Of a DNA stretch of 64,000 nucleotides, positions 46,287 through 54,920 are shown one piece after another. The notes beneath the pieces are model-generated. The model did not search any database. It saw nothing but the letters and a program-made list of their open reading frames with translations, and had not been told where the DNA came from. Origin of the DNA: Gelatoporia subvermispora B (Eukaryota > Basidiomycota > Agaricomycetes > Polyporales > Gelatoporiaceae); assembly GCA_000320605.2 (NCBI GenBank), contig KB445791.1:3522576-3586575 (forward strand). The letters are read 5' to 3'. Positions within the stretch are counted from its first letter, which is position 1. The number at the start of each line of letters is the position of its first letter. The translations under genes and the position numbers were made by a program.

Positions 46287-47703
46287 CCATCAAAAATTCA
46301 CAATTCCTAAGCAATCAGATTCCGCAAATTGCACTGGTACCTGTCGCCATCCACGCATAATTGGCCCCCGCACTGTTCTGTCTTCGTGTCTCATAAATCA
46401 TGCAACATTCTGCGTATCTTACGCTGTATAATCCGTACATGCACGTCTGCTCTCGCCGCCTTTATCACTATCTATTTTTCGTTCGCGTCGTTCACGTCTT
46501 GCGCCATCTTTTGTCTTCCACCACTCATGCCCCTCATGACCGCAGCGACAAGCCACATCGCCCGCCCGCATGTAGTCTGCCTCGCTCTGCATCCGCTTTT
46601 GTGACTCGAAACGTAAAGTGTATAGTTCGCATTCGTACATACGCCGTATTGTCCATGTATGTGCCATTGCTGCATCTCCCGAGAACTGTTGTAGTCTACT
46701 ACATAGCTCGTAGATGTGCGAAAGTAGCTTGTTAATTGCATACATTGTTATCTCCAAGCGTGCCCGCTGTCTGCCTTCCGGTTGCTTTATTGTGAGCAAG
46801 GTTCTCATGGAGCGACAGAAGCATGAGAGTGATCCAGGGAAGCCGCGCGTGATGGAAATTGAACGGAAAGCTTCCGGGGATTCGAAGTGAGCGATGCACC
46901 CGGGATGGGGCGGGCGCTCCCGTTCGAGGTCCGCAGGCGTTTCTTTAACCAAAGCCGATTGGGATCCGCACCGTCCGACGGCGGAGGGAGTTCACGATGC
47001 ACGTGGATCTTCGTCAGCGGAAGTGGGTTGTGCACGATTCTCTTCCGCACTCTCCGCGCAGCGGTGCGGCACACATACGCCCCGCGGATGGCCGCGAATC
47101 TATATCAGGTGTGCTGTAATGTGCGTAAGAGAATCGTTCATGAATGGACATGACTATTTGGCAGGCTGCCGAGAAGATGCGACGCGACGGGCTTCCTTGG
47201 CTGTTGCACGTAACTTGCTGACTGATGACAAAGTGCCACCCCGATGACAGCTCAAAATGTCAACATAGATCGGATCGAACCGCAGGGTGATGTTGCGTTG
47301 TAGTCTCGCAAGCCAGACGTTATAGGAGGATGGCTGCGCCACGGAGGCTGCCGAGCGGAGATTCCCACTACGACTAGTAGTGGGTCTTGTGGACCTTCTT
47401 GTCCGCGAAAACACTACAAACGACCCAGGATTTGCAAATGATACAAATTTCATTACAATCTCGCTTTTCTGAGTTTGAAATAGTCACGTGGTTTTCCCAC
47501 GGTTACAACTACCGGCGCTTCGTGTGTGCCGCCCCCGCGGCGGCCCCACCCACCGCTGAGCGCTCGTGTCGTGCTTTAGCCTGTGCGACAAGGATGTGAT
47601 TCATTTGAGGAGATGGTTTAGGTGAGAGGATGGTCGTAGTGGGCTCTGCCGCGCTCGCGCGGCGTTATGTGAGGTCGAAAAAACAGGGCTCGCATCCTCC
47701 TAT
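46287..47703. other. Intergenic, left flank of the mobile element
   Basis: No gene supported. The first 500 bp are probably the homeobox 3' UTR. The part from 47313 to 47712 is bounded by a 20-bp exact inverted repeat (listed separately) whose right arm runs into the left terminal repeat of the element. Confidence 0.5.
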
Positions 47704-47712
47704 AACGTCTGG
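47313..47712. repeat. Inverted-repeat-bounded 400-bp segment at the left end of the element
   Basis: CCAGACGTTATAGGAGGATG at 47313-47332 is the exact reverse complement of 47693-47712. The match continues after small gaps: CCCACTACGAC at 47364-47374 pairs with GTCGTAGTGGG at 47633-47643. The right arm includes the first nine bases of the terminal repeat of the two-gene element (AACGTCTGG). The segment has no coding capacity and resembles a MITE or fold-back remnant related to that element. Confidence 0.65.
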
Positions 47713-47765
47713 TGAGATTCGGTAGGGCGGGTGTAGATAGGTCCTCACGTGATGTCAACGCGTCG
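47704..47765 (+). repeat. Left terminal inverted repeat
   Basis: A 62-bp sequence starting AACGTCTGGTGAG and ending ATGTCAACGCGTCG. It matches the reverse complement of 53527-53588 at 58 of 62 positions without gaps. It lies 143 bp upstream of the helicase ATG. Beyond it, only TCGAAAA recurs at equal distance (29 bp) on both outer sides, so the sharp edge is near 47704. Confidence 0.85.
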
Positions 47766-47908
47766 GTCGCGTCGCGCTTGTGGCACTGCCAGCAGCACAC
47801 CGCGCACCATCTCCCGGGCCTTCTCCTCGCATACATTCACTCCTCTGTCTCTCTGTTTACTAGTGTACTCTAGTTAGAATTTATATAACCTCTTTTCCTG
47901 CTCGAAAT

Positions 47909-50704
47909 ATGCCTGACAACATACCACTCAAGTCCGAGCCAAGTACACCTCAAACCGGCATCCCAGTCGCCTCGGCAGACATCCACATGTCAGACTCACC
48001 CAGAGCCCCAGAGATATCATCTGAATCGACGTCCGACAACGCTCAAGACGTCACGCTTCAGGACGTTGAGGCCGTGCAATATGATCCGCACTCAGAGGCG
48101 ACCTACAGTGTCTTTCGTGCGAAGCGCCGTGCTGCTACGAAATCACGCAAGTATTGCTCGCAGGACACCCGCCAGCGTATGATAGACGGATTCCGTCACG
48201 CATGCGATGGGAAGGAGCCGTATACCTGGCAGCTTGACGCTGCAGAGGCTGTCCTTCTTGGACTCGACTGCTTGGTTGTAGCGGGCACGGGCGCAGGCAA
48301 GACATACCCATTTGTCATGCCCCTGCTCGCGGATCCCACTAAGTCGAAAAAGGTGATCATAATATCGCCTTTAAATGACCTTGAAGCGGACCAGGTGAGC
48401 TGCGTTTCCAACGCTTCATGCTCTAGAGTTGTACCACTAACGAGATCGCGAACTCCACTAGGCTGCACGATTCCGTCGCATGGGTCTGACAGCCACTCCC
48501 GTCAATGGCGACATATACAACGAGCAGTTCCATAAAGTGACTATTCATTTATTTTTCCGCCTGTATTTGCTGACGTTTGCTCAGAGGATACTCAGCGACG
48601 AATTTCAAGTCCTTCTCCCATCACCCGAAATGTGCCTCAAGCATGAGCTGTTCTCTAAGCTCATGCGTACACCCGACTTCATGAAGAATGTCGCCGCAAT
48701 CGTTATTGACGAAGCCCACTGCATCTCACAGTGGGGAGAGACCTTTCGCAAAGATTATCGACAGCTCGCAAAGCTGCGCTCGTTTGTTCCCCTTGACGTC
48801 CCTATTCTGGCAACATCTGCGACACTCCCACCCCATGTCCTCGCCGATGTCAAGGCCCAGCTATGCTTCGACTCGAGTGACATGCTATACATCAATCTCG
48901 GCAACGATCGGCACAATATTACGCCCATTGTCTCGCGCATGCGAGGCGCTGCTGGTGATCTCAATGCGCTTAATTTTGCCATTGATGAAGCAGCAGCAGG
49001 TCTACCCCTTCCGAAGACCTTGATCTTCTTCAACACTCGCTTGCTAGTCCAAGACGCCTGCGAACATCTACGCGATCTCCTACCAGAGCATCTCCGGCAC
49101 GAGATAGATTTTCTGCATGCTTTTCGCACTCCTCTGTCCAAGCAAAGGGTCATGAAGGATTTCCGAGCCGGGCGCATCAAGATCCTATGTGCTACCGAGG
49201 CCGCGGGCATGGTGAGTTCATATTTCTCCGCGACTTGACAATGACTGATTATGACCACGTTCTTGTAGGGATTGGACATTGGTGATATTGTCCGAGTCAT
49301 CCAATTCATGCTCCCGGACTCGCTTTCCATCTGGTTTCAACGCTACGGCCGTGGGGGACGCGCTGGTCATCCCACAATCGTGGTGCTCCTTGTCGAAGAC
49401 AGCGCCTTTCAGTTGGTCAAGAAGTCCCCCGTCAAGCGTGATCCGGATAAGGCCAGCAATGCGGATGCTCCGGATTCTCATCCTGACGACGAGGATTTTG
49501 ACCGACATGAACATCACCAATACGAGCAAGAAGATGAGCACGAGAATGACGAGAACGATGAGGACAACATTGGGGCTGTCCACGACGCGGTAGACATGCT
49601 GCCAGCTGCCACTGCAAATACTAAGTATCGCAAGAAGGTTGAGGGCGGTCTTCGTGCCTGGATTGACACCTCTGGCTGCCGGCGTGATGTTGCAGACAAG
49701 TACTTTGCAAACACCACTCCCCGTGTTGGTATGCCTTAGGTGACTATATGCGCTTGTAACTGCTGACCTTATGTGTCTCGCATTTAGTCCCAACAGTGCC
49801 ATGTTGCGACAATTGTCTCCTTCGCCTACGAGACACTCCCTCATACACTCTTACTCCACTTGAGACGGAGACTCTTGCCTTTCTAGACTCTGTGCATGAG
49901 CGCACCTCTCGCTTCTCACTGGTTGATCATATGCTTGTCGACGATAGCGACAATCCAGATCCACTGTCTCCGCATGCCCAGGATTCTCATTCAGCACGGT
50001 CGAGTCGTCCCGGACAGCGACGAGGCAAACATCTTACCACGTGCCGCACTGCGCTCTCGCAGTGGGTTGAACAATGCTGGAAGCAGAACTATCCATACTG
50101 CATCTGGGGTCCTAACATTTTGCTACCTGACAAAGTCCTCACGAAACTCGCATCACTCGCTCGCATTCAAACGCTCGACGATCTCATGCATGAGATTCCA
50201 GAGTGGGCTTTCGCTGATACATGGGGCTCAGATGTTCTACAGCTACTTGCCAAGCTCGATGCCGATGAGAAACGAGAAAAAGAGCGCATTCTCGCTGAGA
50301 AGAGAAGCATCAAGAAAGAAGAAAGCGCAAGAAAGAAGGCGCTGCGCACAGAACAACGTCGCGAGGAGCTTTATCAGGCTCGACAGCAAAAGAAAGCGGC
50401 TAACAGTGCCAACGGTATGCATTTACAATATCATGTTCTTCAAACAGTGCCACAGGTGCCCTCCAACATACCATCATCACTCACGTACAGTACGTTTCCG
50501 GTGTCCGCATCACGCATCCATTATCCTCTTGTCCCTGGGCCAAGTCAACCGAGTCCTCCTCTCCATATGCCATACTATCCTATCCCAGCGTATGCGTACC
50601 CAGTGTATTACCCGCAGCCGTTACCGCATGTAAGCTCGTCTTCAATGTCAAGTACAGTATCCACTACATATCCTCATTTTCCAAGTCCCATGAATCCTCT
50701 GTAG
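47909..50704 (+). CDS. RecQ-type DEAH-box DNA helicase of the mobile element
   Basis: Superfamily-2 ATP-dependent DNA helicase. Five exons (47909-48394, 48462-48536, 48585-49211, 49269-49728, 49788-50704) sum to 2565 nt, 854 aa, in frame. After a 120-residue disordered leader come motif 0 (YTWQLDAAEAVL), Walker A (VVAGTGAGKTYPF), motif Ia (IISPLNDLEADQAARF), the DEAH box (AIVIDEAHCISQWGETFR), motif III (ILATSATLPPHV), motif IV (KTLIFFNTRLLVQDACEHL), motif V (ILCATEAAGMGLDIGDI) and motif VI (QRYGRGGRAGHP). Next is a very acidic Asp/Glu/His stretch (about 49470-49565) and a RecQ-like zinc region with CRRDVADKYF and CCDNC. The C-terminus has a Lys/Glu coiled segment (about 50265-50400) and a Pro/Tyr/Ser tail. 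Its last 41 bp overlap the opposing gene. A TATA-like TTATATAA lies about 25 bp before the ATG. Confidence 0.88.
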
Positions 50705-53418
50705 ACCGTTTACGTAGCCTTCCTTTCCACCAATTTTCCATCGATTTTGTAACACGACCTTCAACTAGACTAGTCTCAATATAATCGGCGCATTTGTCAC
50801 GTGTACCTAGAGTTCGACCGTCAAGGTGCTGGTGTAACTTCGATTTTTGATACGACTGTTGAAGTTTCTTGACATCTGCCTCCTTGCTCGGTGAGGTGTG
50901 TGATTTGCCACGTCGGAAGTGATTGATATCATCTTCAACATGGTCGATGACCTTACGCTGTGTTGGTATAGATGCAGATGTCTTGCCAATGTACTCCCAT
51001 GATGTATAGGGCCCGGACGTCGCGAAGGTGTGCTACATGATATCAACTTTGTACCGGAAGTAATGACACAGTCTGTCACACCTTGATTCCCAGCACATTA
51101 TGCTCCTGCAGCATGTCGATAGGTAGGAATCTTCCTGGCAATCCGGTTGTGTTTGCAAGCCATGAATGCTTGAGCATATAATCTCTACAATGGCAAACAT
51201 TAGTGTTGCATGCAAAGAGCCCCAAGACGACGAAAATGCACTTCAAATCATCAGGCCATTCCTTATGAATCGACTGCAGTATCTCGAGTATTTCAACAGC
51301 GTACTTGCAGTTCTTTCCACCTGCAAAGCGAAAGAGCAACCGTGGCAGAAGATCCTCCATGCGCCCAACATCACCAGAACTGATCGCATCAGTGAGATTC
51401 AGATAATCGAGTATATCCCGATTAAACTGAACAGCTTGCTGTAGTAGTTGATCTTGTTTATTCTTTGGTTTGCTCTGTAAAGCATGCAAGGCAGGTGTAG
51501 ATGCGTATTCATCAATGATGCGAGTTGCCAGTACATGTAATTGTTGTGGATGTAGTTGACGTAGGTCTGCGAGCGAGGAGACATTGCCGAGAACACACCA
51601 GAGATCCCGAAAGCGTGCCTCGGCAACATGCAAGAGTAACTCTTGTATATGGTGATGAAAGGTACCCTGAACGGACGGTGAGTGGAGTCCTTTGCGGTTA
51701 AGGAGCTCTATGGAGTGAATCAATCCGAGGGAAGCCCTTGTGCCGAAGTATTGTGCATGTAGGGAGTGCTCAAATGCCATGAGGATATGAAGCCATCCAG
51801 GCTGCTTCTCGATATGCTCGAGACGGTCAAACGAGTTTAGCTCCGCATACCGGAAGGTTTGCAAGCCACGGATACGAGCAATAGTAAGCTGGTCTCCAAC
51901 CCAGGGAATCACAGAGCTTCCAAGGATGCGTCGCTTTTGTTGGGTTCTGAATCCGAGCTGGCGCCAGATATCTGCCAAGACACGGTCATTGCCTTCGTAT
52001 GATGACTCGTCGATGTGCATTGTGTTCAACATATACTGGCAGGTTGCGTATTCCGGCCCAGTAGGCAGCTGAGAGACAGGAGCAGGTGGGTCGAAAAGAT
52101 CACTCATCTTGTGCTTGTAGTTGTCAAAGTCGAACTCGGGAGCATCAGTGAGAAGCTTGAGAACATAGAAAATAGCCCAAGAACGCAAACGAGAGGATGC
52201 AGCACTCTCAAGATCAAGAACATTGCGCAATGTTATCGGATTCTTGCGTCCTTCAAGGAACTGCTGGCACCGAGCGTTGGGATCAGGACATATTGTGTGA
52301 GGCTGTTTGTTGATTAATATAGTAGCCGCCGTCCCGCAGTCGAAGCGGTTTTGATTATCAAGTCGCTGCTCGAAAGCCAGAATGCGTACATGGAGATTAT
52401 CATAGACACCGCCCCAGGGATAGACCGCAATATCAGAGAGCAAGGATTGTCGTGATGATTGAGCAAGTGTGAGGATACCATCATAAGCCCATTTCTGGCT
52501 CATTGTGATGCCGAGAGCATGCAGTGTATCGAAAGCTTTAGTCGCAATGCCACAACTCTTGAAATAGATTGTCAGAAGCTTCTGTATGCTGCTGCACATG
52601 CGAGACCGGGTGAAAGCAGCAATAGCGATCATCGTAAGGATGGCCTTGGACACGAGCAGCATAAGACATTGTCAGTGGACAGCGAGACATGCAAGAGCGT
52701 TCACCGGTGCAGGATTCTTCTTCGTATTACGCTTCTCTTGCTTACGTGTGTATGAGACACGCTGGAGAAGAGACCATAGAGTCGGAGCAGTGGAACGTGC
52801 AGTGTCAATCATTGGCTGCCACGAGACACCGAGAAGTGACTCTTCAGACAGTCCGTGCTGTGGTGATAGCAGATAAGGGCGTAACTTCTTCATTTCGTTG
52901 TTGATTACATCGTTCACAAGCTCTGTAGCCCACTTTTTGAGTATGCTTGATGCTCCTTTGCTGCGGATGCCCTTGCCGTGACGACGAGGCGGCTTGTACA
53001 TATTTCTCAAGATTGCCGGAAGCTCTTGGCTCTGTGTAAGAGTTGTTCTTGCATAGCGTGCTTTTGGGTCGGGTACAAGCTCTTCGACGTGGTAGAAAAT
53101 TGCCCAGAGAAAGAGAGGCAGGTTGAGAGACTGTGTTGTCATAAAGTCCAGTACATTCCGGACTCGCTGTGCTATGTCACCAGATTGCTCAAGTCTTGCA
53201 CGTAGTGTCGCAGTATGATCTTCATAGATAGTCTTGCTTCGTGTTCTTGAATGCTCTGGGTATGTCCAATTAGGCCCCAAGTTACTCTGAGCTGTGCCGA
53301 AGGTGCTGTCCTCGAGCTCGCAGGGCGCCGTGTCAAGTTCCAAAGTATCACTCTCTGCATCAGAATCTTCATCCTCGGAGGAATCATACTCGAGTTCATC
53401 TTCCAAGTGATCACTCAT
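50664..53418 (-). CDS. DUF6589-type protein, candidate transposase of the mobile element
   Basis: Three exons (53418-52705, 52644-51082, 51032-50664; introns 60 and 49 nt) sum to 2646 nt, 881 aa, in frame. The N-terminus is acidic (LEYDSSEDEDSDAESDTLEL). A helical region follows (MIDTARSTAPTLWSLLQRVS). The DUF6589 signature comes next: FDTLHALGITMSQKWAYDGI, VYDNLHVRILAFEQRLDNQ, VIPWVGDQLTIARIRGLQTF, GWLHILMAFEHSLHAQYFGT, SIELLNRKGLHSPSVQGTFH and HHIQELLLHVAEARFRDLW. Asp320 of the YDN motif and Asp489 of the GDQLT motif are spaced acidic residues that could belong to an RNase-H-like centre; this is inference. The last exon is basic (ENWWKGRLRKRSTEDSWDLE). No function is established to my knowledge. 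I assign it as the recombinase-like partner from its position between inverted repeats. Confidence 0.8.
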
Positions 53419-53526
53419 GGTGGAAGAGGTAGTAACAAAAGATATATTTGGGGTAACGCAAGCTTGTCTACAGTGGTCGATCATACGCGGTGGAGCGCAT
53501 ATAATGAGTGCTCGAGGGGCCGTGCG

Positions 53527-53588
53527 CGACGCGTTGACATCACATGACGACCTATCTACACCCGCCCTACCAAAACTCACCAGACGTT
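53527..53588 (-). repeat. Right terminal inverted repeat
   Basis: Reverse complement of the 47704-47765 repeat with four substitutions and no gaps. It lies 108 bp upstream of the DUF6589 gene ATG (53418). Outside it is a short hairpin (GGAGATTTTCGATCTCC, about 53605-53621). Confidence 0.85.
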
Positions 53589-54920
53589 CGTGCTGCGTCG
53601 TCGCTGGAGATTTTCGATCTCCGACCGGAGAGCGCCGAGCAGCACGTGCGGATGGGAACGAGACTAGTTGCGTTGATTTGGGCGCTCTGTGAACGCGTGA
53701 ACCTTCGAGGGTTGATGGAATCATCACGATGGGGACGTATGACCCTGGATGAGGGCATAGGTTACAATGCTGTTGAACCATCGTTAACGGATATGATGGG
53801 GACGTATGACCCTGGATGAGGGTATAGGTTACAATGCTGTTGAACCATCGTTAACGGATATGGAGGCAGGGCTACTAGGGTTCCAGGTACAACGATAGGC
53901 GGCTGCGCTAAATCGTCGTAATCTGTATCTGATAGGTCAAACGTTCGAGCTGCGCCTCTCAAGTTAGATGGACCCTCTATATGGCAGTACCTAGTATCGC
54001 ACGTACCTCGCATACCGAGACTGCTTGGGGAAATCATATGTCTTGAATTGTGCCATACGATACCCGAGCAATGGCGCCGCGTAGCAACACGTCGCATTTG
54101 GTTGAAACTTGCAGGGAAAGTGTAGGCCCCAGACGGGCAGGCTGAGCAGATCCGGCAAGCCCATATCCGCTGTTGAGCATTTCCCGGAACTGCCTCTATT
54201 GCATCGGCGAAGACAGGCACAGGTGAGAGACTGTACATGCTCATTGAATTCAAAAGAAGCTGCCGCCACATTATGAATGGTCGGCTGTAGCGTTAGGTTC
54301 GCTATTCTTGCTTTCTCCCGAGACATCCCCACGCGGAGTTAGAACGTAGCAAGCGTCGATCCCAAGATGTCTATCCGTCTGAGTCTAGTGGCCGAAGCGG
54401 GTGAAGAACATGCCAAGGAAAGCGGCCAATGGCATTGGAGGGCATTCTGACCAGAAGCAGATCGTATGACTTCTTGGCGTGAATCAGGTATGAGCCTGAC
54501 TACAGAACCCTATACAGCTTCAATGCATGTGATAGGAAACTACCCGTCCCGCGTTGACAATAACATGAGCTAGCAAGTTCGCGAGAGCTTGAGAATGGTG
54601 GAGGCTGGTGGAGGACGTTCGATGTCCACGACTAACACGAACGCGTCGCGCTGCCGCCTCTTGCAGAATTAGCGCTTGCGCCACGGTCACGTGCGAGGTG
54701 GCGCGCTATGCCCCTCCGACGACTTTGACGTCGACCTTGGCCATGTCGTCATCTCCCGGTCACTCCAGCGACGCTGCAATATATGAGAGGCATATTCCTC
54801 TAAAATGTCCCCCCTAAACTCTGTGCTAACGATCTTTGCGCACAATTCACAACTTTACGACACACCTCGAGGACGCCAAAATCCGTGAAATTATCGCTCG
54901 AATTCAACTGACTGAATAAT
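53589..54920. other. Intergenic right flank of the element, no gene supported
   Basis: About 1.3 kb. It contains a 67-bp tandem duplication (separate entry). A minus-strand frame of about 165 codons (around 53762-54271) has no recognisable motif, and its 3' end is built from the tandem duplication, so I do not call it a gene. It may be decayed sequence. Confidence 0.4.
53728..53861. repeat. Perfectly abutting 67-bp tandem duplication
   Basis: Two direct copies, 53728-53794 and 53795-53861, each starting GATGGGGACGTATGACCCTG and ending GTTAACGGATAT plus one base. I find one difference (GGGCAT versus GGGTAT). It lies 140 bp outside the right terminal repeat of the mobile element, and the near identity indicates a recent event. 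Confidence 0.9.

What the first reader, a model, noticed from the sequence alone, without database searches (positions are those of the whole stretch)
47704..53588. Compact two-gene inverted-repeat element: RecQ-like helicase plus DUF6589 protein
The 62-bp inverted repeats (58/62 identical) bound exactly two convergent genes, and both coding models close in frame (854 and 881 aa). DUF6589 has no assigned function that I know of. Finding it as the only other gene in a bounded unit with a helicase suggests it is a transposase-like recombinase that needs a helicase for end unwinding or replicative transposition. This would be an autonomous DNA transposon type with an unusual gene set.
Basis: partly seen in the sequence, partly recalled or inferred. 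Interest (0 to 1): 0.9.

Follow-up and report, generated by a model that had tools for sequence, protein, structure and literature searches.

The report
Mushroom jumping gene carrying a helicase
This is a real DNA transposon of a mushroom, most likely of the already described AcademH type, which carries its own DNA helicase; its second protein, from a family labelled "unknown function", is very probably the cut-and-paste enzyme.

Summary
The 62-bp repeats (58/62) and two convergent genes are real: an 854-aa RecQ-type helicase and an 881-aa DUF6589 protein. But the repeats are subterminal. The element is 47301-53666, with 8-bp ends TAGTCTCG, a palindromic stretch at each end and a perfect 9-bp target duplication. 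In this genome 7 of 8 both-ended copies of the group have perfect 9-bp duplications. Six of 7 short copies are 94-97% identical, where they align, to one of three long copies, as expected of a mobile family.

AlphaFold models of DUF6589 resemble P element, Hermes, Transib and RAG1, and place conserved D320, D489 and E752 where a DDE active site is expected; DUF6589 is probably the transposase. The helicase is under purifying selection (dN/dS 0.17) and lies beside DUF6589 at 10 of 13 loci here.

A helicase plus 9-10 bp duplications in a fungal DNA transposon is the described AcademH type (Kojima 2020, not held; known from citing passages). I file it as a probable AcademH member; homology to a reference Academ transposase could not be tested. 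The addition is naming DUF6589 a DDE transposase. The helicase's role is inferred; no empty site was found.

The parts
47301..53666 (.). whole element, TAGTCTCG...CGAGACTA, 6366 bp including the 313-bp insertion
   Evidence: alignment with copies in the own genome
47292..47300 (.). left copy of the 9-bp target duplication GTTGCGTTG
53667..53675 (.). right copy of the 9-bp target duplication GTTGCGTTG
47301..47308 (+). left terminal inverted repeat TAGTCTCG
53659..53666 (-). right terminal inverted repeat (CGAGACTA on +)
47313..47332 (+). outer arm of the left-end palindrome; its inner arm is 47693-47712 (20 of 20 complementary), the two now pushed apart by the insertion
   Evidence: pair I2; uninterrupted form folded in L010 and L018
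47693..47712 (-). inner arm of the left-end palindrome, overlapping the start of the 62-bp repeat
   Evidence: pair I2
53589..53648 (.). right-end imperfect palindrome (approximate limits)
   Evidence: DNA fold of the window right end (no shuffled control run)
47362..47674 (.). 313-bp insertion of a dispersed repeat in the left end
   Evidence: alignment with the C20 copy; 100% identical copies at three other places
47704..47765 (+). left subterminal 62-bp inverted repeat
53527..53588 (-). right subterminal 62-bp inverted repeat
47909..50704 (+). RecQ-type helicase gene, 854 aa, introns 48395-48461, 48537-48584, 49212-49268, 49729-49787
50664..53418 (-). DUF6589 gene, 881 aa, predicted DDE transposase, introns 52645-52704 and 51033-51081

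Best explanation
An autonomous-type cut-and-paste DNA transposon, most likely of the AcademH lineage. Shown: bounded copies with 9-bp target duplications, short derivatives that match particular long copies, and purifying selection on both genes. Inferred: the DUF6589 protein is a DDE transposase that binds the 62-bp subterminal repeats and TAGTCTCG ends, cuts there using D320, D489 and E752, and joins the ends to target strands 9 bp apart. Inferred and weaker: the RecQ-type helicase works for the element itself, unwinding the palindromic ends or the gapped donor or target joint.
For: Perfect 9-bp duplications in 7 of 8 both-ended copies of the group and 2 of 2 group III copies examined; shared ends; short copies paired with long ones; dN/dS 0.167 helicase and 0.124 DUF6589, window versus C7; core model: the first 22 VIA-align rows are all DDE transposases or RAG1, Foldseek best hit P element, E 2.3e-3, probability 0.98; D and D and E together in 45 of 46 rows that have letters at all three sites; helicase sequence beside DUF6589 at 10 of 13 loci; AcademH described with helicase and 9-10 bp duplications and in Basidiomycota.
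Against: No empty site found (3 joined flanks of 8 prepared). One both-ended copy, L016, has no duplication; two more copies have only one end motif. No Foldseek match reaches E 0.001, and the VIA rows are a re-ranking of Foldseek's list. The folded sequence keeps one intron (20 residues) in the whole model and lacks the last exon in both. The AcademH paper and reference sequences could not be consulted. At 3 of 13 DUF6589 loci no helicase was seen.
Confidence: 0.8

Rival explanations
1. A separate, unnamed superfamily of DDE transposons (DUF6589 plus helicase) that resembles AcademH only in gene content and duplication length.
For: Homology of DUF6589 to Academ transposases was not testable here. 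The best structural matches are P element and Hermes, but the C/DxxH signature of the hAT/P/MuDR/Kolobok/Dada group (described in PMC9587614) was not seen at any position in 5 or more of 62 rows.
Against: Helicase, 9-bp duplications and a basidiomycete host all fit AcademH.
Confidence: 0.15
2. The helicase is a passenger or a captured host gene, not needed by the element.
For: Short derivatives without it were mobilised, though they could use it in trans; the C7 copy's helicase shows in-frame stops in the aligned part (2; open frame broken).
Against: dN/dS 0.167 between window and C7 copies; found beside DUF6589 in three diverged groups, 10 of 13 loci, with both convergent and divergent gene order; consecutive gene numbers in two other mushroom genomes.
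Confidence: 0.1
3. A KolobokH element: a fungal Kolobok transposon with a RecQ helicase.
For: KolobokH is fungal and encodes a RecQ helicase (PMC9587614 passage).
Against: Kolobok makes TTAA duplications; here they are 9 bp and of varied sequence. The C/DxxH signature was not seen.
Confidence: 0.02
4. A helicase-driven element that copies itself by rolling circle or another replicative route.
For: A helicase is present, as in Helitrons, and the ends are palindromic.
Against: Target duplications and a DDE-like protein; no Helitron or PIF1 domain among the Pfam matches of either protein at E <= 0.1.
Confidence: 0.04
5. Two host genes that happen to lie between chance repeats.
For: Only that no empty site was seen.
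Against: Shared exact ends, with a different perfect 9-bp duplication at each of 7 places.
Confidence: 0.01

Closest known systems
AcademH, helicase-encoding Academ DNA transposons (Kojima 2020, Mob DNA 11:15; paper not held, known from passages in PMC10045372, PMC10799480 and PMC8290104)
   Same: helicase gene of the DEAD/Helicase_C kind, 9-10 bp duplications, occurrence in Basidiomycota
   Different: nothing shown to differ; homology of DUF6589 to the Academ transposase was not testable here
KolobokH (fungal Kolobok with RecQ helicase, passage in PMC9587614)
   Same: RecQ helicase in a fungal DDE-type transposon
   Different: Kolobok makes TTAA duplications; here 9 bp of varied sequence; C/DxxH signature not seen
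P element and Hermes (hAT) transposases
   Same: predicted RNase H-like fold with a helical insertion between strand 5 and the last helix; best structural matches
   Different: 6-12% identity in the structural alignments; no P- or hAT-type Pfam domain found; 8-bp duplications and no helicase in those (recalled)

Membership tests
AcademH | encodes a helicase (DEAD/Helicase_C kind) | tested here: met
   AcademH or KolobokH named as source of these domains in PMC10799480
AcademH | 9 or 10 bp target duplications | tested here: met
   9 bp perfect in 7 of 8 both-ended copies; two group III copies read as 9 bp, up to 11 if the first bases of the repeat are counted
AcademH | transposase homologous to Academ transposases | not testable with these tools
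   no Academ reference sequence or paper held
KolobokH | TTAA target duplication | tested here: not met
hAT / P / MuDR / Kolobok / Dada group | C/DxxH motif between second D and last E | tested here: not met
   no position with the motif in 5 or more of 62 rows, at fixed spacing in the query; definition from PMC9587614
Helitron | HUH Rep protein with PIF1-type helicase, no target duplication (recalled) | tested here: not met
   no such Pfam match in either protein at E <= 0.1; duplications present
DDE transposases in general | RNase H-like fold with D, D, E | tested here: met
   predicted models only; conserved residues; no biochemical test

The most novel reading that the evidence does not exclude
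DUF6589-helicase elements form their own superfamily of DDE transposons, structurally near P/hAT/RAG but without the C/DxxH signature, in which a self-encoded RecQ helicase opens long palindromic ends before or after cleavage: a helicase-dependent cut-and-paste mechanism.
Probability: 0.15. Interest if true: 0.7.

Novelty: new member of a known kind. Interest (0 to 1): 0.42.

Why it matters
A Pfam family of unknown function that is common in mushrooms gets a concrete assignment (DDE transposase, with a named triad to mutate). Many mushroom gene models called "DUF6589 domain-containing protein", and some called "DNA 3'-5' helicase", are then probably transposon genes rather than host genes. Long copies with matching short derivatives in one genome give a ready system to ask why some cut-and-paste transposons carry a RecQ helicase.

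Tried and rejected
Element ends at the 62-bp repeats: rejected, copies align past them. Empty sites: joined flanks of the window, C12 and C25 copies (3 of 8 prepared) each found only their own two flanks, plus for the window copy the adjacent 67-bp tandem copy. Viral contigs: 99 stretches matched a pattern, none confirmed as a relative. Third catalytic residue: E689 or E692 (P0001 E709/E712; conserved in 59 of 61 rows each) was considered. E752 (P0001 E772, 46 of 46) is preferred because the core model ends 8 residues past it, and the aligned ranges end at P element 539 and RAG1 970, 8 past E531 and E962 (entry title); Hermes 580 and PFV 229 fit with recalled E572 and E221, Mos1 293 is off by one against recalled D284. 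This assumes no gap in the last residues. Group II left end not found. Literature: DUF6589 0 papers; PF20231 4 hits, unrelated by their titles; Academ-H 0; Muszewska 2017 not held. Other PDB families absent from the VIA lists were not excluded by that. Host: a DUF6589 relative named Gelatoporia subvermispora B lies on a contig of 1,749,049 bases, the length of C8 here, but that protein was not found in this genome, so the species is a guess. One search failed through my file handling; one search repeated it. My note says the C/DxxH motif is in 0 of 62 rows; the call only shows no position with 5 or more.

Full report
What is there. They run tail to tail and overlap by 41 bp. The helicase matches DEAD and Helicase_C and is nearest to RecQ helicases of known structure (Bloom helicase, E 1.5e-32). 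A RecQ zinc-binding domain stays below its cut-off.

Boundaries. A search of the window's own genome gave a second full-length relative on C7 (77%), a 14-kb relative on C1 and several short copies; the tool calls such counts lower bounds. Laid side by side, they agree well outside the 62-bp repeat and stop at TAGTCTCG...CGAGACTA. The window element is therefore 47301-53666, with GTTGCGTTG on both sides. Of 8 copies of this group with both end motifs, 7 have a perfect 9-bp duplication, each of different sequence; L016 (273 bp) has none. Two further copies (L013, L017) have one end motif only, and L019 is a fragment. Between the 8-bp end and the 62-bp repeat each end has a palindrome that folds as a DNA hairpin, with different sequences at the two ends (five ends folded, no shuffled control). 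The left palindrome of the window copy is split by a 313-bp insertion (47362-47674) of a dispersed repeat that is 100% identical at three other places.

Family. Short copies pair with particular long copies. L011 is 95.2% identical to the window copy. L010, L012 and L013 are 97.0, 94.7 and 94.8% identical to the C7 copy. L017 and L018 are 94.5 and 94.8% identical to the 14-kb copy. L016 is nearest to C7 at 90.3%. These figures are for the parts that align: 1157 of 2726 bases in L012, 275 of 480 in L017, 307 of 988 in L018, most or all of the others. This is what derivatives mobilised in trans look like. Between window and C7 copies dN/dS is 0.167 for the helicase and 0.124 for DUF6589, at dS about 0.92, so both genes have been under constraint. 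In the C7 copy the aligned helicase shows two stops and the aligned DUF6589 one (some may be alignment running into introns), so that copy may be broken. Against the 14-kb copy dS is saturated.

Relatives in the genome. There are 13 DUF6589 loci by my grouping of 22 matches (none in 14 control genomes). They fall in three groups. Helicase sequence lies beside DUF6589 at 3 of 3 loci of the window's group (the third, the 14-kb copy, has about 8.2 kb of extra DNA in the DUF6589 gene), 6 of 7 of group III (for four of these only the stretch matching the C-terminal part was in reach) and 1 of 3 of group II, there in divergent order (at one of the other two none lay within 3 kb, at the other the flank was not fetched). 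That is 10 of 13. Group III copies on C25 and C6 are 97.5% identical over 6.4 kb, with ends CAGGCTC and duplications read as 9 bp, or up to 11 if the first bases of the repeat are counted. The group II right end reads TAGGCTCG; its left end was not found.

Relatives elsewhere. The DUF6589 search found 185 proteins and the helicase search 527, 120 listed each, both from capped candidate lists. In Hermanssonia centrifuga and Trametes cinnabarina the two genes bear consecutive numbers. Some of the shared contigs are megabases long, so there a shared length does not show adjacency.

Comparison with what is known. From passages: AcademH makes 9 or 10 bp duplications and encodes a helicase (PMC10045372). 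AcademH is low-copy in Basidiomycota, Ascomycota and Mucoromycota, and DEAD and Helicase_C domains are named as coming from AcademH or KolobokH (PMC10799480). Putative nonautonomous Academ elements were noted in Marasmius oreades (PMC8290104). KolobokH carries a RecQ helicase, but Kolobok makes TTAA duplications (PMC9587614). The founding AcademH paper is not held. I file the element as a probable AcademH member. What I add is the assignment of DUF6589, the predicted triad and the end structure. Searches for DUF6589 and PF20231 in the held library gave no paper on the family; subscription papers and Repbase entries could not be searched.

Mechanism. Shown: mobility, from copies, duplications and derivatives, and constraint on both genes. 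Inferred: DDE cut-and-paste. Least certain: what the helicase does. Ends that could form hairpins suggest end opening or resolution; repair of the gap left by a 9-bp staggered cut is another option.

Noticed in passing
window 47362-47674: A dispersed 313-bp repeat inserted in the left end of the element, 100% identical at three other places in the genome; its class was not determined.
   Followed up: partly
window 53728-53861: A 67-bp tandem duplication (99% identical) just right of the element.
   Followed up: no
L014 about 1424-1441 (C1:236023-236040) and C1:250450: Further end motifs of the same family flank the 14-kb copy, one separated from it by just the 9-bp TCTGATTGG that is also its duplication: repeated insertion at one target or rearrangement.
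   Followed up: partly
L014/L015, C1:239520-247754: About 8.2 kb of extra DNA inside the DUF6589 gene of the 14-kb copy, not characterised.
   Followed up: no
L020 3600-5675 and L021 4071-4548: Helicase relatives with no DUF6589 match in the 9-10 kb fetched around them: remnants or independent helicase genes.
   Followed up: no
L049 213-2611 with L023 (C6:632 to 638 kb): A group II DUF6589 locus where the helicase is divergent rather than convergent; left end unresolved.
   Followed up: partly
P0002 versus G000:C8: A Gelatoporia subvermispora B DUF6589 protein is listed on a contig of exactly the length of C8 but is not found in this genome; a masked stretch or another assembly could explain it.
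   Followed up: partly
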